Assembly (NCBI RefSeq): GCF_000255115.2
Contig: NC_018068.1
Span: 4,311,977 to 4,375,976 of the forward strand
Reading direction: 5' to 3'
Origin: Desulfosporosinus acidiphilus SJ4
GTDB lineage: Bacteria > Bacillota > Desulfitobacteriia > Desulfitobacteriales > Desulfitobacteriaceae
DNA: 64,000 nucleotides
Positions 15,071 to 41,968 of this stretch are shown here, piece after piece. The notes under the pieces were generated by a model. The model was given only the letters and a program-made list of their open reading frames with translations, did not search any database and was not told where the DNA came from. How positions within the stretch are numbered: position 1 is the first letter of the stretch; the number at the start of each line of letters is the position of its first letter. The position numbers and the translations under genes are program-made.

Positions 15071-16279
15071 TCAATCGAATCTCTTCAGTAAAAGAAGATT
15101 TAATTTAATTTTCCGTGTTTTATTGCCCGGCATATTCCTGTATAGCAAGAACTCATAAAGGAATACACAAATATATGTCCACAGGCCGCTGACTGTTAAA
15201 GCTGTGACCATGGCGCTTGGTGTATGAATCCGCAGATAAACAGGACTTAGTCCTAAGAAGAATACTAGCAGAACCCCTGCGATCAGAATCCAAAGCCGAC
15301 TGTACCAGGATTCTTTTCGTGCTAAAACATAGCTAAGAACTGCGTAAAATGATAAGCTGCCCAGTAAAAAACCAGTGTTTGGAGCTTGAAAGGGTATAAT
15401 GTTTTCAAAGATACTTACGTTCTCACCCCGGAAAATGAATCGAAAAAAATAATCAACCAAAGTTCCTCCGCCCCAAGCAAGACTAAGGGGAAGAACATGA
15501 ATCCATTGCTTAGTTTTATACCAATAGCCAAATAACGCAACTAAAAAGACACTTAATATCACAATATGAGTACTCAAAGCATTAATTTGCTGCATTGAGT
15601 AGATCATCCAGAGTGGAGAAGCCAGTTCCAGACCGGAAGCCACCATGTGATCAAATTCAGCAACGTCGTTCGTCACAAAATCTTGAATTAGACTCATTAA
15701 AAAAACAAAAAGTCCTACAAATGTTACAGAGCCTATAATAATTAATAATCGCAGCTTACCTAACGAACGATAATTACTGGTTAGACGCAAAAACTCCCCA
15801 GACAGCCAAGCTCCCCATCGTTCATGATTCTTATACAACCGATAAAATATTATAAAGAGAACAGCTGCAATTACTCCAAGTAGGATAGAATAACGATGGA
15901 TGATCGGAAGAATAGTGTTCCATTGACTGCCCAAAGTCCTTCCCAGCAGGATAAATACACTTGCCCAGGAAATGGCCCCGAGATAGGAATATAGTGCAAA
16001 ATCCCGATAATTTAAGCGGCTTAAACCGGCAATATAGCCAGACAGATGACGTACTCCAGGAATAAAATATCCTGCCGTCAGAAGTTTACCACCATGTTGA
16101 TGGTACCAACTAAGCACCTTTTCCAAGCGCTGACTTCCCGCATGTTTTCTTAGGTATACCAATACGTTTGCTTCGAAAAATCGTCCCAGAAAATAAGCAA
16201 TAGTAATCCCTGTTATACTTCCGATAGCTGATGAAATAATTGCTAAAATTCTGCGCCTTATCAAATTACAGATTAGCAA
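15071..16279 (-). CDS. DedA-PAP2 fusion protein, N-terminally truncated and with degenerate phosphatase motifs
   Basis: The 402-aa frame joins a DedA (SNARE-associated) domain, residues about 15-165, to a PAP2 phosphatase-like domain, about 175-390. DedA proteins move undecaprenyl phosphate or phospholipids across the membrane; PAP2 enzymes remove phosphate from polyprenyl pyrophosphate. Two defects are visible. The DedA part starts at GSITGITIAYFLGRFFE and lacks about 50 residues that the intact DedA at 43741 has, with a stop in frame upstream. In the PAP2 part the PSGH motif is replaced by LGSLSF and the last motif reads SPVYLRIHTPSAM, losing the Arg and the final Asp. It starts at TTG with no good ribosome site. 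It may be a decaying gene or a transport-only remnant. Confidence 0.68.
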   Translation of the reverse strand: MLICNLIRRRILAIISSAIGSITGITIAYFLGRFFEANVLVYLRKHAGSQRLEKVLSWYHQHGGKLLTAGYFIPGVRHLSGYIAGLSRLNYRDFALYSYLGAISWASVFILLGRTLGSQWNTILPIIHRYSILLGVIAAVLFIIFYRLYKNHERWGAWLSGEFLRLTSNYRSLGKLRLLIIIGSVTFVGLFVFLMSLIQDFVTNDVAEFDHMVASGLELASPLWMIYSMQQINALSTHIVILSVFLVALFGYWYKTKQWIHVLPLSLAWGGGTLVDYFFRFIFRGENVSIFENIIPFQAPNTGFLLGSLSFYAVLSYVLARKESWYSRLWILIAGVLLVFFLGLSPVYLRIHTPSAMVTALTVSGLWTYICVFLYEFLLYRNMPGNKTRKIKLNLLLLKRFD

Positions 16280-19503: not shown

Positions 19504-20376
19504 ATGAATTTTCTAAAATTATTGCGGCCTCATCAATGGATTAAGAATAGTTTTGTTTTGCTGGGTATAATGTTTTCTAAACAATGGGACCTGGCAACTT
19601 TATTTCTTGCCTTTGTTACTTTTGGAGCCTTTTGTTGTATCGCGAGCAGCATCTACGTCTTTAATGATTTACTGGATATTGAGGCTGACCGCCAGCATCC
19701 TACAAAAAAAACGCGGCCGCTCGCGAGCAGGTTGATTTCCCCTCGAAGCGGCTGGATGATTGCGGGCGGACTGGTTTTAACAGCCTTGTTGCTTGCTGCA
19801 GTTTCGGGACCATGGGTCGTGTTGTTTATTGTTATGTATGCAGCGTTAAATATCGCTTACACACTTCGCTTAAAACAAGTTGCCGTTCTGGATGTGTTTA
19901 TTATTTCCGCGGGTTTCATGCTGCGTATTCTTGCCGGAACAATCGGTCTCGGCATTGCTCCCTCCTCTTGGCTATTGCTCTGTGGATTTATGCTCTCCCT
20001 CTTCCTGGGCTTTGCCAAGCGTCGGGCTGAATTTTTTACTCTTGAGAACAGTGGGTTGTCCGAGACCAAAAATCAAACGCGACAGGTTCTAAGAGACTAT
20101 AGCCCCATGATGATTGACCAGTTTATGGCAGTCAGTTCCGCCTGCACCATTCTATGCTATGGTCTTTATACCGTTAATTCAGAAACGGTCGCTCGATACG
20201 GCACTACAGCCTTAATCTATACGTTACCTTTCGTGGTTTATGGTGTTTTTCGTTATATCTTTCTATTACATCGACGCGGTAAGGGTAACGACACCGCACT
20301 TGATCTCTATTCAGACCCCCACTTATTAGTAACTGTTTTAATCTGGGGACTAGTAACTGTAGTGATCATAGCATGA
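19504..20376 (+). CDS. UbiA-family phosphoribosyl transferase, decaprenyl-phosphate phosphoribosyltransferase-like
   Basis: A 290-aa membrane prenyl-group transferase with about nine helices. The first Asp motif is NDLLDIEADRQHPTKKTRPL (about 59-78), the form with RQHPTKKxRP typical of the DPPR synthase branch (mycobacterial Rv3806c) rather than quinone enzymes. That enzyme joins 5-phosphoribosyl pyrophosphate to a polyprenyl phosphate at the cytoplasmic face. Context is decisive: DprE1- and DprE2-like genes follow in the same operon. ATG at 19504 is 14 bases after GGGAGG, rather far. It overlaps the next gene by four bases (ATGA). The lipid is probably undecaprenyl in this organism; that is inference. 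Confidence 0.85.
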   Translation: MNFLKLLRPHQWIKNSFVLLGIMFSKQWDLATLFLAFVTFGAFCCIASSIYVFNDLLDIEADRQHPTKKTRPLASRLISPRSGWMIAGGLVLTALLLAAVSGPWVVLFIVMYAALNIAYTLRLKQVAVLDVFIISAGFMLRILAGTIGLGIAPSSWLLLCGFMLSLFLGFAKRRAEFFTLENSGLSETKNQTRQVLRDYSPMMIDQFMAVSSACTILCYGLYTVNSETVARYGTTALIYTLPFVVYGVFRYIFLLHRRGKGNDTALDLYSDPHLLVTVLIWGLVTVVIIA

Positions 20377-21344
20377 TCATATCAGGGTTAAGCAAACGAA
20401 AATTAAGCAGCATTGTCCTCTTCTTCGTTTTGGTGCTGGCGGGTTGTCTGATCTTTGCCCAATGGAGTAATAGAGAAAACTATTTCTCTGCTGTTCAAAC
20501 CATCGGTATGACATGGCTTTGTTTACTTCTTATACTTTCACTTCTAAATTATCTTCTTCGGATTATTCGCTGGCAAAACTACCTTAGATTCCTTGGTGCA
20601 AATCTGCCCGTTACTTTGAGTGCTTTGATTTACGTAGCAGGTTTTGCCCTTACGATGACACCTGGCAAAACGGGAGAATTGTATCGCGGTGTTTTTCTTA
20701 AGACTTATGGCGTAACCTATACCAACAGCACTGCAGTTTTTGTAAGCGAGCGCATTTCCGATTTATCGGCAATTCTTCTGCTGACACTACTGGGCACATT
20801 CCACCAACTCCACTGGTTTATGATAATTTCGGTGATAATCGTCGCTGCGATTATCAGCCTGTTTTTATCGTTACACACTAAATTCCCTCTCAAATTCCTT
20901 GGCAATTTATCCAGACTTATACATCTTTCATCCAAAACAGGACGGCGTTGGCTAACACTTCTCAAAGAAGCGCGGCGCTGTCATAGTCCGCGTATCCTAA
21001 TCAGTGCAACGTTTTTATCACTTCTAGCCTGGTCCTCTGAAGCATTTGCTTTTTATCTTCTTCTTTACAAATTAGGGTTCAGTGCGGGTCTGCTTTTTGC
21101 CTTTTCTGTATATGCTCTCGCAACATTAGCTGGGGCAATAAGTTTTCTGCCGGGAGGTCTCGGCGGTACAGAGGCAGCGATGGCCGGTTTACTTCTTATG
21201 AATGGCATGCCTGGAACACAGGCCATTGCGGCGACTGTTATTATTCGCTTGACCACTTTATGGTTTGCCGTATTTTTAGGTGTGATAGCTTTAGTCCTTG
21301 GCAAGCGAGTGCTAGTTTCCGGCACTGAAGAGCAAGGCAACTAA
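20373..21344 (+). CDS. Flippase-like membrane protein (LPG_synthase_TM family)
   Basis: A 323-aa protein with about eight membrane helices of the lysylphosphatidylglycerol-synthase transmembrane type (PF03706, UPF0104). The diagnostic parts are LRIIRWQNYLRFLG, MTPGKTGELYRG near residue 95 and FLPGGLGGTEAAMAGLL near residue 265. In MprF-like and related proteins this fold carries lipids across the membrane. Its start overlaps the UbiA stop, so it belongs to the same unit. I infer that it may flip the polyprenyl-linked pentose made by its neighbours, in the place of the GtrA-type protein (Rv3789) found beside mycobacterial dprE1. It lacks the soluble lysyl-transferase domain. Confidence 0.82.
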   Translation: MIISGLSKRKLSSIVLFFVLVLAGCLIFAQWSNRENYFSAVQTIGMTWLCLLLILSLLNYLLRIIRWQNYLRFLGANLPVTLSALIYVAGFALTMTPGKTGELYRGVFLKTYGVTYTNSTAVFVSERISDLSAILLLTLLGTFHQLHWFMIISVIIVAAIISLFLSLHTKFPLKFLGNLSRLIHLSSKTGRRWLTLLKEARRCHSPRILISATFLSLLAWSSEAFAFYLLLYKLGFSAGLLFAFSVYALATLAGAISFLPGGLGGTEAAMAGLLLMNGMPGTQAIAATVIIRLTTLWFAVFLGVIALVLGKRVLVSGTEEQGN

Positions 21345-21380
21345 TTCAATAAAATTATTAAAAAGGATGGTATAAAACAA

Positions 21381-22673
21381 ATGGATCTTTCCTGGAATCG
21401 ATTCCCTCGCTTAAAGCATCGTGAGGTCTTTAACTTATCTGAAGGTTTTGTCAGCTTACCACGGACTGAGTCATTCTGCCTCCCTTACGGAAACGGCCGT
21501 AGTTATGGTGATGTCTGTCTCAATGAAAATGGAGTGCTGCTGAATACACGAAAATTAAATCATTTTATTGACTTTGACCAAACAACGGGCCGCCTGCGTT
21601 GTGAAGCCGGGGTTTTGCTAAAGGAAATTCTCGAATTGGTTGTACCGAAAAATTGGTTTTTACCCGTAACGCCTGGGACCCAGTTTATTACAATTGGCGG
21701 AGCTATCGCCAATGATGTACATGGCAAAAATCATCACTGTGCCGGCTCCTTCGGAAACCACGTGATCCGTCTGGAATTACTGCGTTCTGATGGACAGCGA
21801 ATTGTCTGCAGCATGGAGAAGGCCAAAGATTGGTTCACGGCAACCATTGGCGGCTTAGGACTGACAGGCCTGATTACTTGGGCGGAGATACAGCTGATCC
21901 CCGTGAATAACCCCTGGATATTAGCTCAATCCCGACGCTTTTCCAGCCTGGATGAATTTTGGGAGATTAATAGCGAGGCCGAGCATCGCTGGCCTTATAC
22001 TGTTTCCTGGTATGACTGCCTCTCGGCAGGACGCGGCCAAGGCCGGGGTGTGTATATATCGGGGCAGCACGCGGCTGAGACAGATAAGTTCCCCCCACGC
22101 CACCCTAAGTCGCTGCGCTTCCCATTTGACCCGTCATTTTCGTTAATTAATCCTGTCAGTCTGAGACTGATTAATACTGTTTATTACCATAAACCGATCA
22201 AGGATATGCCGGCATTATCTCATTACGAGCCCTTTTTTTATCCCCTTGACGGAGTGCTTGATTGGAATCGTATCTATGGGAAAAAAGGATTTTTCCAATA
22301 TCAATGCATTCTGCCGCCGGAGGACGCTCAGGACGGAATAAAAGCCATGTCGAAAAAGATTGCTGCCAGCGGACAAGGTTCGTTCCTTGCCGTTCTAAAA
22401 ACTTTTGGAAATATACCTTCGAGAGGTTTAATGTCCTTTGCTCGCCCGGGCGTCACACTAGCTCTGGATTTCCCCAATCATGGTCAAACAACGCTGCGTC
22501 TATTCAAAGAATTAGACGCCATTGTGTCTGAAGCTCAAGGTGTTCTTAATCCTTCGAAAGATGCACGCATGTCGGCTAAAATGTTCAAGAGCGGTTTTCC
22601 GCGGTGGGAACATTTTGCCGACTTCATTGATCCAAAATTCTCATCCAGTTTTTGGAGGAGAGTCACACAATGA
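21381..22673 (+). CDS. dprE1: DprE1-like FAD-dependent polyprenylphosphoryl-ribose 2-oxidase
   Basis: A 430-aa oxidoreductase of the vanillyl-alcohol-oxidase fold with an ALO-type C-terminal part. RSYGDVCLN (about 41) and GGAIANDVHGKNHHCAGSFGN (about 112) form the FAD site, and match DprE1, including the His of HGKNHH. The catalytic-site Lys is kept in NPSKDARMS. In mycobacteria DprE1 oxidises C2 of decaprenylphosphoryl-ribose, with DprE2 reducing it to the arabinose epimer. At the position of the Cys targeted by benzothiazinones (mycobacterial ICVDFP) this protein reads LALDFP, so Ala. No signal peptide. AAGGATGG precedes the ATG; the stop overlaps dprE2 (ATGA). Confidence 0.9.
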   Translation: MDLSWNRFPRLKHREVFNLSEGFVSLPRTESFCLPYGNGRSYGDVCLNENGVLLNTRKLNHFIDFDQTTGRLRCEAGVLLKEILELVVPKNWFLPVTPGTQFITIGGAIANDVHGKNHHCAGSFGNHVIRLELLRSDGQRIVCSMEKAKDWFTATIGGLGLTGLITWAEIQLIPVNNPWILAQSRRFSSLDEFWEINSEAEHRWPYTVSWYDCLSAGRGQGRGVYISGQHAAETDKFPPRHPKSLRFPFDPSFSLINPVSLRLINTVYYHKPIKDMPALSHYEPFFYPLDGVLDWNRIYGKKGFFQYQCILPPEDAQDGIKAMSKKIAASGQGSFLAVLKTFGNIPSRGLMSFARPGVTLALDFPNHGQTTLRLFKELDAIVSEAQGVLNPSKDARMSAKMFKSGFPRWEHFADFIDPKFSSSFWRRVTQ

Positions 22674-23425
22674 GTAAGCGGCAGAGAATTGTTATATTTG
22701 GCGCTACATCGGCAATAGCAGGCGCATGTGCCCGCCAATGGGCGAAGCAAGGCAACAGCATTTTTCTGGTAGGACGCAGTCAAGAAAAGCTGATGGCGCT
22801 TCTCAACGATCTTCGGCAAAACGTTTCTTTTGAACAAACGATCGAAGGGGTAATAGCCGATTTAAACGAATTCAGGCTCCATGAAACTCTCCTTTCACAA
22901 GCGGAACAAGTCCTCGGAGGAATAGATATAGTACTCATCGCTCATGGAACTCTACCGGACCAACAGGCCTGCCAACAGTCCGTGGATTTGACTATGCAAG
23001 AGATTCGCACCAATGCCCTGAGTGTCATCGCCTTACTCATTATCTTAGCTAATCGTTTGGAGACGCAAGGAAACGGCACTTTAGCCGTGATAACTTCGGT
23101 TGCCGGGGATCGCGGTCGAGGGAGCAATTATGTGTATGGTTCTGCCAAAGGCATGGTTACCCTCTTTTTGCAAGGTCTTCGCAACCGCCTTGTCTGGCGG
23201 GGAGTCAATGTTATCACTATTAAACCCGGCTTCGTGGACACACCGATGACCGCTCATTTTGCCAAGAAGGGTGTCTTATGGTCAAAGCCTGATCATATCG
23301 CTGTCGGTATTGTAACAGGCATTGCCAAAAAAAGGAATGTTGTCTATTTACCAAATCTCTGGCGTTGGATCATGCTCATTATCCAGCACATACCCGAAAG
23401 TATTTTTAAAAGACTAAATCTCTGA
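22670..23425 (+). CDS. dprE2: DprE2-like short-chain reductase
   Basis: A 251-aa SDR enzyme. The dinucleotide loop is IVIFGATSAIAGACARQW (about 7-24), and the catalytic Ser and Tyr-x3-Lys appear as TSVAGDRGRG and YVYGSAKG. KPGFVDTPMT is the usual downstream motif. As the partner of DprE1 it would reduce the 2-keto intermediate with NAD(P)H, completing epimerisation of polyprenyl-phospho-ribose to the arabino form. The start is ATG 22670 inside the dprE1 stop with TTTGGAGGAG ahead, so it is translationally coupled; an earlier TTG at 22652 lies inside dprE1 and has no ribosome site. The C-terminal WRWIMLIIQHIPESIFKRL is amphipathic and may touch the membrane. Confidence 0.87.
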   Translation: MSKRQRIVIFGATSAIAGACARQWAKQGNSIFLVGRSQEKLMALLNDLRQNVSFEQTIEGVIADLNEFRLHETLLSQAEQVLGGIDIVLIAHGTLPDQQACQQSVDLTMQEIRTNALSVIALLIILANRLETQGNGTLAVITSVAGDRGRGSNYVYGSAKGMVTLFLQGLRNRLVWRGVNVITIKPGFVDTPMTAHFAKKGVLWSKPDHIAVGIVTGIAKKRNVVYLPNLWRWIMLIIQHIPESIFKRLNL

Positions 23426-23479
23426 GGATAATGTCCGAAAACATCTTGAAATGGCTCCATCAAATATGAAGGTGAAAGA

Positions 23480-25168
23480 ATGAATAATAGCCGAGTCTTG
23501 AGAATCAATGGAAAAAGATACAAATTGAATTTGAAACGTTTTCTTTTGACAGCATTAATCTTTTTTACAATATTAGGCACAATAGCTGCCACATTAATTC
23601 AGCGGATTAATAATTATGACCCAGTGACTCCCATTAACCTCTCAAAAGAAACGGCCAGGCAATTTATTCAGCTATTAGATTCTACAAAACAATACCATGT
23701 TTCTTCTAATGCTTCAGACAACACTCAGCCCATCTACGCTCTTGGCAATAATGGAATAATTAAGAAGATACTGGTCAACGCACGAAAAGTCAGCAAAACG
23801 AACCAAATCTATGTATTTAGAACACCATATCAAAACGGCCGCTATTCCATTACCCTGCCGCCGGAATCCTTAAGCAACGGGCCGCAGGTCAATGATTCAG
23901 CACTGACTATGGCGTATCCTTTTATGTTTTATGTCAGCTCCTTTAATGGACAACCCCAGTCTATTAATGCCTATAACTTGCAGAACAACAAAAAAAATAT
24001 ATTTACGTTTTCCAACGTTGTCAAAAACGCAAATATCCTACCTATTAACAAAAACCAGGTAAAAGTACGATTGGTTGAGAATGCCGGAAAGACGGCGAAT
24101 GTTTTTCTTACTATTAATAAGAATACTGTTTTCAGCAGTTCGCCTAATGACTTGCAATATATGGCCCCTCCCTCCGATAACACGTCACCCTTTATTCGAT
24201 TGGTCGAAGGGGTAAAGCAGATCATGGGCAATAGCACAGTGGCCTTTTTAGAAAACACCTGGTATCAAACTAAAGACAATTTTACAAGTCTATTTTACTC
24301 AGTAAAGAACAGGAAGCAACAAAGTAACCCAATCCGTGCCGAAGACATCGCAGCAGCCATTCCTCAAAAGCCTGCCTTGCCAATCGTTCCAGACAACAGC
24401 CCGCCTCTGGTAAAGTCAATAGTCTATCCGGATCCCTCTCGCTCATATATTAAAGCGAGCTTAGTGAAAATTAACCCGAAGCTGGTCGATTTTCATCTAA
24501 CAGCTGGTACAGAAGACCCTGTCTCGGTTACGGGCATTCATGGAACCGGTATGATACCTTGGTCAGTACAGCGACAGAATAATCTGATAGCAGACTTTAA
24601 TGCTGGCTTTCAAGCTAGAGATGGAGTCTATGGCTTCATGGTCAACAATCAGGTCTATCAGCTGCCAAAAAAAGGACTGGCAACCTTTTGCATCTATAAA
24701 GATGGGAAAATTGATATCGGCTCTTGGGGTAAGGAAATAAGTTCTACAACCAATATGATTTCCCTGAGACAAAACCTGCCAATGTTGATAGACAACGGTA
24801 AGCTAAATCCACTTATTTCTGATCAGGCAAAATGGGGCGCAACAGTTAATAATGCTGTCCGGGTGTGGCGCTCTGGCATCGGGATTGACGGACAAGGGCA
24901 AATTATTTATGCCGCCGGTAATAATCTCACAGCTGAAACCCTAGCCCATGCTTTACTTAGTGCCGGAAGCATCAGGGCGATGGAGCTTGATATAAACAGC
25001 TATTGGGTTACGTTTAATTTCCTGCATCATACTTCCGGCAGCAGCAATGGTTCGTTGGTTGGAACAAAGCTCGACCCCTCTATGACTAGATCACCCTACC
25101 GCTATTTATCGCCTGACACAAGAGACTTTTTTTATCTAACTCTTAAAACGCCTGCACATCCATCTTAA
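23480..25168 (+). CDS. Phosphodiester glycosidase (NAGPA-like) with long extracellular N-terminal region
   Basis: A 562-aa protein with a single N-terminal membrane anchor (about 20-42) and a large outside part. The final 240 residues are a PF09992 phosphodiester glycosidase domain: DFNAGFQARDGVYGFMVN, VRVWRSGIGIDGQGQIIYAA and AMELDINSYWVTF, the last holding the conserved Asp. Family members remove sugars linked through phosphodiesters (the human 'uncovering enzyme', exopolysaccharide proteins of bacteria). The middle 300 residues match nothing I know. It ends the UbiA-dprE operon, 54 bases after dprE2, and could act outside on a phosphodiester-linked pentose polymer; this is inference. A second family member is at 41003-41968. 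Confidence 0.8.
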   Translation: MNNSRVLRINGKRYKLNLKRFLLTALIFFTILGTIAATLIQRINNYDPVTPINLSKETARQFIQLLDSTKQYHVSSNASDNTQPIYALGNNGIIKKILVNARKVSKTNQIYVFRTPYQNGRYSITLPPESLSNGPQVNDSALTMAYPFMFYVSSFNGQPQSINAYNLQNNKKNIFTFSNVVKNANILPINKNQVKVRLVENAGKTANVFLTINKNTVFSSSPNDLQYMAPPSDNTSPFIRLVEGVKQIMGNSTVAFLENTWYQTKDNFTSLFYSVKNRKQQSNPIRAEDIAAAIPQKPALPIVPDNSPPLVKSIVYPDPSRSYIKASLVKINPKLVDFHLTAGTEDPVSVTGIHGTGMIPWSVQRQNNLIADFNAGFQARDGVYGFMVNNQVYQLPKKGLATFCIYKDGKIDIGSWGKEISSTTNMISLRQNLPMLIDNGKLNPLISDQAKWGATVNNAVRVWRSGIGIDGQGQIIYAAGNNLTAETLAHALLSAGSIRAMELDINSYWVTFNFLHHTSGSSNGSLVGTKLDPSMTRSPYRYLSPDTRDFFYLTLKTPAHPS

Positions 25169-41002: not shown

Positions 41003-41968
41003 CTAAGGAGTTACGACAAAGGCAGTAGGAATATAGCGTTCCCCGAAAATATCCCAGAGCTTGTTCTCAACTTGTCCATTATAGACAAGTTCTGATGAAG
41101 AGCCGCCGTCAAGGTTAACAGCATTGACGGCATGATAATTTTCGAAAACATTCATCAGGTCCCGTAAGGTTGCTCCAATACTCCAAGTTGGCTGTCTGCC
41201 GTCAATAACCACAAAAATCACCGTTCCATCAGCCATCTGCCCAATTCCTGTGCGAGGCGCAATCCCCCAGCCACCATCCCCTGAAATGACAGGATTTCCA
41301 TCGACAATTAAATTCGGTCCGAAGGTAACCGCTTCAAGGATATGTTTCTGAGCTACTTGTGCTGCAGTCAAATTTCCGATAATCAATTTGCCTTGATCAT
41401 TAAACCCCACAATATTAACCGCCTGATTGCCCACATTGTTGTGGACTATTTTTCCATTTTGCACGGTGAGCCCGTCTGGAAATGCTCCATTTCCTTTGCC
41501 ATTAGGATCGTAGAATCCCCCCGCATTAATACCGGCAACTGCTCCCGTATCCTTTACAAGATCGCTGACTCTTTCACCCGTTACGCCAATCTCTTTAGTA
41601 ACCGCTGCCTTCACGCGCTTCGGGTCTTTAATGAGCATTACTTTCCCTTTGAAGCTTGGACCTTGAATATCTTCAATGGTAATACCGGAACTGGCATCAG
41701 CCATTACTTTTTTACGCCCAATGCTTTGACTGCTGCTAACTCCTTGGGCATCATTCTGATTCATAATTCGGTCGATTTCTGCTTGGGAGAGAAATGCCTT
41801 GACAACCTGAGGATGACGGGAAGTATAAACTGAACCAACTGCCATTACTTTTAGCGCCTGAAAAGGACCCCAGAACAAAACAAACGGAGCTAAGATCATA
41901 AGAAGGATGAGGTTATAGGCTAAAAATGTAATAATTACTTTCACTCGAATTCTGCGTTTTCTTTTCAT
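41003..41968 (-). CDS. Phosphodiester glycosidase family protein (PF09992, EpsL/NAGPA-like)
   Basis: A 321-aa protein with one N-terminal membrane anchor (about 8-32). The body is a complete PF09992 domain: AVAGINAGGFYDPNGKGNG (about 145), APRTGIGQMADGTVIFVVID and AVNLDGGSSSELVYNG with the conserved Asp and Gly run. Family members act on sugar-phosphodiesters, including wall polymer and exopolysaccharide decorations. It is more typical of the family than the operon-end homologue at 23480 and carries the NLDGGSSS motif that one lacks. AAGGGGAAG precedes the ATG. Confidence 0.85.
   Translation of the reverse strand: MKRKRRIRVKVIITFLAYNLILLMILAPFVLFWGPFQALKVMAVGSVYTSRHPQVVKAFLSQAEIDRIMNQNDAQGVSSSQSIGRKKVMADASSGITIEDIQGPSFKGKVMLIKDPKRVKAAVTKEIGVTGERVSDLVKDTGAVAGINAGGFYDPNGKGNGAFPDGLTVQNGKIVHNNVGNQAVNIVGFNDQGKLIIGNLTAAQVAQKHILEAVTFGPNLIVDGNPVISGDGGWGIAPRTGIGQMADGTVIFVVIDGRQPTWSIGATLRDLMNVFENYHAVNAVNLDGGSSSELVYNGQVENKLWDIFGERYIPTAFVVTP

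What the first reader, a model, noticed from the sequence alone, without database searches (positions are those of the whole stretch)
19504..25168. DprE1/DprE2-type polyprenyl-phospho-pentose operon in a Firmicute
Seen: five same-strand genes, two of the junctions overlapping by ATGA, encoding a UbiA enzyme with the DPPR-synthase motif, a flippase-like protein, a close DprE1 match, an SDR placed like DprE2, and a phosphodiester glycosidase. Known: in mycobacteria DPPR synthase, a phosphatase, DprE1 and DprE2 make decaprenyl-phospho-arabinofuranose, the only known arabinose donor for their wall. Inference: this bacterium makes a polyprenyl-linked arabinofuranose (or similar) and exports it through the flippase-like protein to decorate a surface polymer. 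No mycolic-acid-type genes are near, so the acceptor is unknown.
Basis: partly seen in the sequence, partly recalled or inferred. Interest (0 to 1): 0.78.

Follow-up and report, generated by a model that had tools for sequence, protein, structure and literature searches.

The report
Arabinose-lipid operon with unusual partner enzyme
An acid-loving Desulfosporosinus carries the gene set that mycobacteria use to make the lipid-linked sugar arabinofuranose, and the fifth gene, an outward-facing "phosphodiester glycosidase" that turns out to travel with these genes in many unrelated bacteria, may be a previously unrecognised enzyme that uses this lipid-linked sugar.

Summary
In detail: five same-strand genes (19504-25168, two ATGA overlaps) encode a DPPR synthase, a PF03706 flippase-like protein, DprE1 and DprE2 homologues and a membrane-anchored NAGPA-fold protein. 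The host is a Desulfosporosinus, very probably D. acidiphilus. A DPPRS-DprE1-DprE2 set outside mycobacteria is not new (Kelly 2024, PMC11127046). The unexpected part is the fifth gene. A specific subfamily of phosphodiester glycosidases (NAGPA) is the fourth member of a conserved module. Of 79 subfamily loci, 36 hold DprE1 within the fetched stretch, in at least three gene orders, in Bacillota and Actinomycetota. Of 27 genomes whose NAGPA locus lacked it, 23 have DprE1 elsewhere. In 396 Bacillota genomes it occurs in three, all among the five with DprE1. DprE1 loci without NAGPA mostly carry a multi-membrane-span, GT-C-like protein; NAGPA loci have none recognised. All 44 homologues examined have an N-terminal membrane anchor predicted to place the enzyme outside. 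I infer that the NAGPA protein uses exported polyprenyl-P-arabinofuranose, most likely as a non-GT-C transferase. A recycling hydrolase or an arabinan-trimming enzyme is not excluded. Product sugar, acceptor, 5'-phosphatase and all activities are untested. New variant of a known kind.

The parts
19504..20376 (+). UbiA-family polyprenyl-phosphate phosphoribosyltransferase (DPPR synthase homologue)
   Evidence: NCBIfam NF008977 258.9 bits, over cut-off; aligns with solved DPPRS 8j8j
19663..19689 (+). NDLLDIEAD motif (N54-D62) of the DPPR synthase active site
   Evidence: aligned to the same motif in 8j8j
20373..20376 (+). ATGA start/stop overlap, UbiA/flippase-like
   Evidence: sequence read
20373..21344 (+). 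PF03706 flippase-like membrane protein, proposed polyprenyl-P-pentose flippase
   Evidence: PF03706 167 bits; same family sits in a second, distant DprE locus L027
21381..22673 (+). DprE1 homologue (FAD oxidase); H114, K340, R297, Y299 and K393 match Mtb H132, K367, R325, Y327 and K418; A361 at the Mtb C387 position
22670..22673 (+). ATGA start/stop overlap, DprE1/DprE2
   Evidence: sequence read
22670..23425 (+). DprE2 homologue (SDR reductase, VYGSAK catalytic motif), 251 aa
   Evidence: best PDB match DprE2 21gq_C; NF053786 167 bits
23480..25168 (+). Membrane-anchored NAGPA-fold protein, proposed to use polyprenyl-P-arabinofuranose on the outer face
   Evidence: PF09992; AlphaFold model pLDDT 84.9; conserved linkage to DprE1
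23531..23611 (+). N-terminal transmembrane helix (residues 18-44), predicted N-in/C-out
   Evidence: model helix 18-44; hydropathy and positive-inside in 43 of 44 homologues
24392..25150 (+). NAGPA catalytic domain (residues 305-557), with R464 and D504 conserved and LDINSYW in place of LDGGSS
   Evidence: VIA-align Z 17.1 to guinea-pig NAGPA 6pku, 19.9 to 3ohg; motif comparison with five paralogues

Best explanation
The operon makes and uses a polyprenyl-phosphate-linked D-pentofuranose, most likely D-arabinofuranose. [quoted passage not shown] Step 2: an unlinked phosphatase removes the 5'-phosphate (candidates in this genome: two DUF212/divergent-PAP2 proteins and one YqeG-like HAD). Step 3: DprE1 oxidises and DprE2 re-reduces C2, giving polyprenyl-P-arabinofuranose. 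Step 4: the PF03706 protein flips it outward. Step 5: the membrane-anchored NAGPA-fold protein, outside the membrane, breaks the sugar-1-phosphodiester bond and passes the arabinofuranose to a surface acceptor, so acting as the terminal transferase in place of a GT-C enzyme. Shown here: gene content, conserved residues, fold, predicted topology, and conserved linkage of the NAGPA subfamily with DPPRS/DprE1/DprE2. Inferred: every enzymatic step, the sugar, the flippase assignment, and transfer rather than hydrolysis. My sub-estimates: polyprenyl-P-arabinofuranose is made 0.9; the NAGPA protein acts on that product or its derivative 0.75; it is a transferase about 0.5.
For: Homology and active-site conservation of proteins 1, 3 and 4. 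NAGPA linkage: 36 of 79 subfamily loci hold DprE1 and 41 hold UbiA or DprE1, in at least three gene orders with unrelated flanking genes. 23 of 27 genomes with an unlinked NAGPA still have DprE1, against 6 of 119 in a class-level sample around Conexibacter. Bacillota: NAGPA subfamily in 3 of 396 genomes, all three among the 5 with DprE1 (hypergeometric 1e-6, 2e-4 by genus). NAGPA-associated DprE1s need at least 3 label changes on well-supported branches of the DprE1 tree. Complementarity: the DprE1 loci without NAGPA in Bacillota and in that class sample carry a multi-TM GT-C-like ORF (L026, L027 PMT_2, L121 WsfD-like, L122), while no GT-C was recognised within 8 kb of the NAGPA loci, whose multi-TM neighbours were mostly identified as Amt, MFS or PF03706. 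No Emb (PF04602) in 37 genomes while C. glutamicum rings. Topology: 44 of 44 with an N-terminal hydrophobic segment, 43 N-in. Chemistry: characterised NAGPA releases a sugar from a sugar-1-phosphodiester (PMC12419801, PMC12024695), and polyprenyl-P-arabinofuranose is such a bond.
Against: No activity has been tested. Characterised NAGPA enzymes are hydrolases. Six NAGPA genomes show no DprE1 (G442, G443, G563, G564, G568, G576), although they are MAGs that may be incomplete, and one of them (L041) is 57% identical to the window protein over its best segment. Some DprE1 loci have neither NAGPA nor a recognised GT-C (L132, L137). The GT-C labels rest mainly on transmembrane counts and weak profile hits, and one 14-TM ORF near a NAGPA locus (L034:4129-5868) has no Pfam match. 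The NAGPA sample is the best 80 of 531 candidates. Unlinked GT-C enzymes elsewhere in these genomes were not surveyed beyond Emb.
Confidence: 0.5

Rival explanations
1. The NAGPA protein is a recycling or overflow hydrolase: it cleaves surplus polyprenyl-P-arabinofuranose outside the membrane, freeing polyprenyl phosphate, while an unlinked GT-C enzyme decorates the acceptor.
For: Characterised members are hydrolases. Blocking use of DPPRS products traps decaprenyl phosphate and is toxic in Corynebacterineae (PMC3937683, abstract), so a relief valve would have value. The module has no dedicated GT-C, so an unlinked one is conceivable.
Against: GT-C-like neighbours occur at DprE1 loci that lack NAGPA and were not recognised at those that have it, which suggests replacement rather than addition. 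No Emb-type enzyme in 37 genomes. A pathway permanently tied to destruction of its product looks wasteful.
Confidence: 0.22
2. The NAGPA protein is a glycosidase that trims or remodels an arabinofuranose-containing surface polymer, or removes a sugar-phosphate from a teichoic-acid-like polymer, after another enzyme has built it.
For: Bacterial NAGPA-domain proteins are often cell-surface proteins. At another DprE1 locus (L121) the neighbour is DUF2961, which I recall as the GH172 D-arabinofuranosidase family, so hydrolases can accompany this pathway.
Against: Does not explain why GT-C-like genes go missing where NAGPA is present. None of 20 module genomes carries a detectable DUF2961 (but no control rang, so weak).
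Confidence: 0.15
3. The lipid-linked product is another pentofuranose (ribofuranose or a different epimer); DprE1/DprE2 here act on a related substrate.
For: DprE1 and DprE2 score below the NCBIfam equivalog cut-offs. Kelly 2024 (PMC11127046) shows that epimerases diversify the pentofuranose.
Against: Conserved equivalents of Mtb H132, K367, R325, Y327 and K418; the best PDB match for both proteins is the mycobacterial pair; DprE1/E2 homologues mark Araf-containing glycans in Kelly 2024.
Confidence: 0.1

Closest known systems
Mycobacterial decaprenyl-phospho-arabinofuranose pathway (Rv3806c, Rv3807c, DprE1, DprE2, Rv3789, Emb/Aft GT-C enzymes)
   Same: Homologous DPPR synthase, DprE1 and DprE2 with conserved catalytic residues
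   Different: No linked phosphatase, a different flippase family (PF03706 instead of the Rv3789 type), no Emb, NAGPA-fold protein instead; DprE1 and DprE2 below the equivalog cut-offs
Three-component pentofuranose systems (Kelly et al. 2024, PMC11127046) and the P. aeruginosa type IV pilin arabinosylation system cited there
   Same: PPPRS makes polyprenyl-P-Rib, epimerases diversify it, a flippase exports it, transfer happens outside the membrane
   Different: No GT-C in or near the operon, no fused HAD phosphatase domain, PF03706 instead of MATE or the Rv3789 type, NAGPA-fold protein as partner
NAGPA / DUF2233 phosphodiester glycosidases (mannose-6-phosphate uncovering enzyme, 3ohg, 6pki)
   Same: Same fold (Z 16-20); N-[AG]-G-F, Arg464 and Asp504 kept
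   Different: LDINSYW replaces LDGGSS, C-terminal RYLxPDxRDFF extension, beta-rich N-terminal domain (residues 50-224) and membrane anchor, genetic partner is DprE1; C. glutamicum has no NAGPA at all

Membership tests
Mycobacterial-type polyprenyl-P-arabinofuranose synthesis | DPPR synthase over curated cut-off, with NDxxDxxxD | tested here: met
   NF008977 258.9 vs 234 bits; motif aligned
Mycobacterial-type polyprenyl-P-arabinofuranose synthesis | DprE1 over NCBIfam equivalog cut-off | tested here: not met
   324 vs 500 bits, so a homologue, not a member of the mycobacterial equivalog
Mycobacterial-type polyprenyl-P-arabinofuranose synthesis | DprE1 residues at Mtb H132, R325, Y327, K367 and K418 | tested here: met
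   H114, R297, Y299, K340, K393
Mycobacterial-type polyprenyl-P-arabinofuranose synthesis | DprE2 over NCBIfam equivalog cut-off | tested here: not met
   167 vs 250 bits; still best PDB match is DprE2
Mycobacterial-type polyprenyl-P-arabinofuranose synthesis | Linked 5'-phosphatase | tested here: not met
   none in the operon; unlinked DUF212 and HAD candidates in the genome
Mycobacterial-type polyprenyl-P-arabinofuranose synthesis | Product is polyprenyl-P-arabinofuranose | not testable with these tools
   needs biochemistry
Three-component pentofuranose system (Kelly 2024) | GT-C transferase in the cluster | tested here: not met
   none in the operon and none recognised within 8 kb
Three-component pentofuranose system (Kelly 2024) | Linked lipid-sugar flippase | tested here: inconclusive
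   PF03706 flippase-like protein in the operon, a different family; activity unknown
NAGPA / DUF2233 phosphodiester glycosidase | PF09992 over gathering score and NAGPA fold | tested here: met
   37.6 vs 25 bits; Z 17.1 to 6pku
NAGPA / DUF2233 phosphodiester glycosidase | LDGGxS motif of ordinary members | tested here: not met
   LDINSYW instead, conserved across the DprE-linked subfamily
NAGPA / DUF2233 phosphodiester glycosidase | Hydrolysis of sugar-1-phosphodiesters | not testable with these tools
   needs an assay

The most novel reading that the evidence does not exclude
A NAGPA-fold subfamily is a new, non-GT-C class of extracytoplasmic glycosyltransferase that uses polyprenyl-phospho-D-arabinofuranose, and it defines a compact DPPRS-DprE1-DprE2-NAGPA arabinosylation module spread over Bacillota, Actinomycetota (Solirubrobacterales and others) and possibly Chloroflexota.
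Probability: 0.45. Interest if true: 0.85.

Novelty: new variant of a known kind. Interest (0 to 1): 0.62.

Why it matters
All enzymes known to me that use polyprenyl-P-pentofuranose donors are GT-C membrane proteins. A one-span enzyme with a soluble outer domain doing that job would be easier to express and crystallise, would add a catalytic solution for polyprenyl-P-sugar use, and would point to undescribed arabinofuranose-containing envelopes in acid-environment bacteria and in a large group of actinobacteria. Even if the protein is a hydrolase, a conserved partner acting on the product of the DprE1 pathway (a tuberculosis drug target) is new to the literature I could search.

Tried and rejected
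Considered 'ordinary UbiA/SDR/FAD oxidoreductase neighbours without a shared pathway': rejected by the DPPRS equivalog match, the DprE1/DprE2 best PDB hits and the conserved order. Considered chance adjacency of NAGPA: rejected by several gene orders in several groups and genome-level co-occurrence. Looked for a GT-C within 8 kb of NAGPA loci: none recognised. Looked for DUF2961 in 20 module genomes: none, but no control rang, so uninformative. Looked for NAGPA or the module on plasmids: NAGPA none; DprE1 in 64 plasmids, mostly rhizobia, and the loci examined had no NAGPA. phmmer of the NAGPA protein against PDB found nothing, so fold comparison was needed. The paper library holds no text linking phosphodiester glycosidases with DprE1 or arabinofuranose that I could find; Das 2013 on DUF2233 was not held, so catalytic residues were judged by conservation only. 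Sigma-70 and terminator scans were near background.
Full report
Setting. The window lies in a 4,991,181-base, 3-contig genome. D. acidiphilus is reported to grow at about pH 3.6-5.5 and D. acididurans at 3.8-7.0.

Observation. The five genes are real, on one strand, with two ATGA overlaps, flanked on both sides by opposite-strand genes. Gene 1 passes the curated DPPR synthase cut-off; genes 3 and 4 have mycobacterial DprE1 and DprE2 as best PDB matches but stay below the curated equivalog scores. Residues corresponding to Mtb H132, R325, Y327, K367 and K418 are kept, while C387, the benzothiazinone target (known biology, recalled), is alanine. Gene 2 is PF03706. Gene 5 is PF09992 with an N-terminal membrane segment.

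Distribution of the pathway. DprE1 is rare in Bacillota: 5 of 398 genomes. In the genus it was found only in the window genome, G014 (D. acididurans) and G021 among 25 genomes. Two distant Bacillota have the core genes with other partners: L027 has UbiA-DprE1-DprE2-PF03706-DUF212-PMT_2, a complete set with a candidate phosphatase and a GT-C; L026 has UbiA-PF03706-DprE1-DprE2-GT2-O-antigen-ligase-like, with a 502-aa multi-span protein upstream carrying a DD motif, typical of GT-C enzymes. Recurrence of PF03706 in these loci supports, without proving, a flippase role.

The fifth gene. A motif-based scan of named genomes with the NAGPA alignment gave 531 candidates; the best 79 loci were read. 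DprE1 lies in 36 of them and UbiA or DprE1 in 41. Orders include UbiA-(flippase)-DprE1-DprE2-NAGPA, NAGPA-DprE1-DprE2-UbiA, and NAGPA divergent from UbiA-DprE1-DprE2. The only gene families shared by most of these loci are UbiA, DprE1, DprE2 and NAGPA; the other neighbours are unrelated (ammonium transporter, Lon, two-component systems, glucoamylase). In 27 genomes whose NAGPA locus showed no DprE1, 23 have DprE1 elsewhere (two of these genomes also have a linked copy), against 6 of 119 in a sample of the class to which Conexibacter belongs (Thermoleophilia). In Bacillota the subfamily occurs in 3 of 396 genomes, all with DprE1.

Sampling in the other direction. DprE1 loci found without reference to NAGPA: in Bacillota the window, G014 and G402 have NAGPA, while G216 and G302 have GT-C-like genes. 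In the class sample G431, G445 and G560 have NAGPA adjacent, G491 and G545 have multi-span GT-C-like ORFs instead (G491 also a DUF2961 protein), and G529 has a broken, lone DprE1. On the DprE1 tree the NAGPA association changes at least three times on well-supported branches, and L026 (GT-C-like) is sister to the Desulfosporosinus/Acididesulfobacillus NAGPA clade. Gram-negative plasmid loci have a larger UbiA gene, GtrA in several cases, multi-span ORFs in several cases, and no NAGPA. I read this as exchange of the terminal enzyme. Weak points: the GT-C labels rest on span counts and weak profile hits, and L132 and L137 have neither partner (in the tree they were nevertheless grouped with the rows lacking NAGPA).

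Structure. The AlphaFold model (pLDDT 84.9) gives a membrane helix (18-44), a beta-rich domain (50-224) that resembles propeller blades only loosely (Z below 10), and a NAGPA domain (about 293-557) matching 3ohg (Z 19.9, rmsd 3.8, 228 aligned) and vertebrate NAGPA 6pku (Z 17.1, rmsd 3.8, 217 aligned). Compared with the five other NAGPA proteins of this genome, N-[AG]-G-F, Arg464 and Asp504 are kept, but LDGGSS becomes LDINSYW and a C-terminal RYLxPDxRDFF is added. All 44 aligned homologues have an N-terminal hydrophobic segment, 43 predicted N-in/C-out.

Mechanism. Characterised NAGPA releases a sugar from a sugar-1-phosphodiester (PMC12419801, PMC12024695); polyprenyl-P-arabinofuranose is chemically such a bond. 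An outward-facing NAGPA protein tied to the genes that make this donor, in loci where no GT-C is recognised, is most simply the enzyme that consumes it. Whether it transfers to an acceptor or to water cannot be decided here. I prefer transfer because GT-C-like genes tend to appear where NAGPA is absent; recycling is the main rival, and PMC3937683 (blocked use traps decaprenyl phosphate; abstract) shows why a cell might need it.

Missing pieces. No phosphatase is linked in the window. In L035-L038 the UbiA gene is followed by a HAD phosphatase (PF00702/PF09419), overlapping by four bases in several copies; L027 has DUF212. The window genome has two DUF212 and one YqeG-like HAD protein. The acceptor is unknown; Acididesulfobacillus, a close relative, is a monoderm, so lipopolysaccharide is unlikely.

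Ecology, as a lead only. Named cultured Bacillota with the NAGPA-linked operon are acid-tolerant or acidophilic (D. acididurans, A. acetoxydans, CEB3, and very probably D. acidiphilus). In A. acetoxydans the NAGPA gene is split by an IS66 element. No test against non-acidophiles with proper sampling was made.

Novelty. The donor pathway is known, and DprE1/E2 systems outside mycobacteria are published (PMC11127046). I found no paper in the held library that links NAGPA-type enzymes with it. New variant of a known kind.

Noticed in passing
L032:6571-10969 (Acididesulfobacillus acetoxydans): The operon's NAGPA gene is interrupted by an IS66-family element; the flippase-like gene is also absent there. 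The sister strain CEB3 (L031) has an uninterrupted NAGPA gene but no UbiA match in the stretch.
   Followed up: partly
window 21381-22673: DprE1 has alanine (A361) at the position of Mtb Cys387, which benzothiazinones modify covalently; predicted insensitive to that covalent mode.
   Followed up: no
window 15071-16279 (-): DedA/UptA-like (VTT) N-terminal region followed by a C-terminal membrane region that looks, by eye, like a degenerate PAP2 domain, a few genes upstream of the operon on the other strand.
   Followed up: no
L035:14490-14996 and equivalents in L037, L038: UbiA overlaps by four bases a HAD-family phosphatase, a good candidate for the missing 5'-phosphatase of the pathway.
   Followed up: partly
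L121:4283-10354 (G491): DprE1-DprE2 next to a DUF2961 protein and a WsfD-like GT-C candidate on the opposite strand.
   Followed up: partly
L090, L091, L094, L099, L104: Several actinobacterial MAGs carry two tandem NAGPA-LDIN genes away from DprE1, although DprE1 is present elsewhere in the genome.
   Followed up: partly
window 41003-41968 (-): A second, ordinary NAGPA protein (LDGGSS type); the genome has six NAGPA proteins in all.
   Followed up: partly
L137:9248-10468 (Flammeovirgaceae plasmid): UbiA-DprE1-DprE2 followed by a 406-aa protein with a signal-like N-terminus that is neither NAGPA nor GT-C by Pfam; possibly yet another partner.
   Followed up: no
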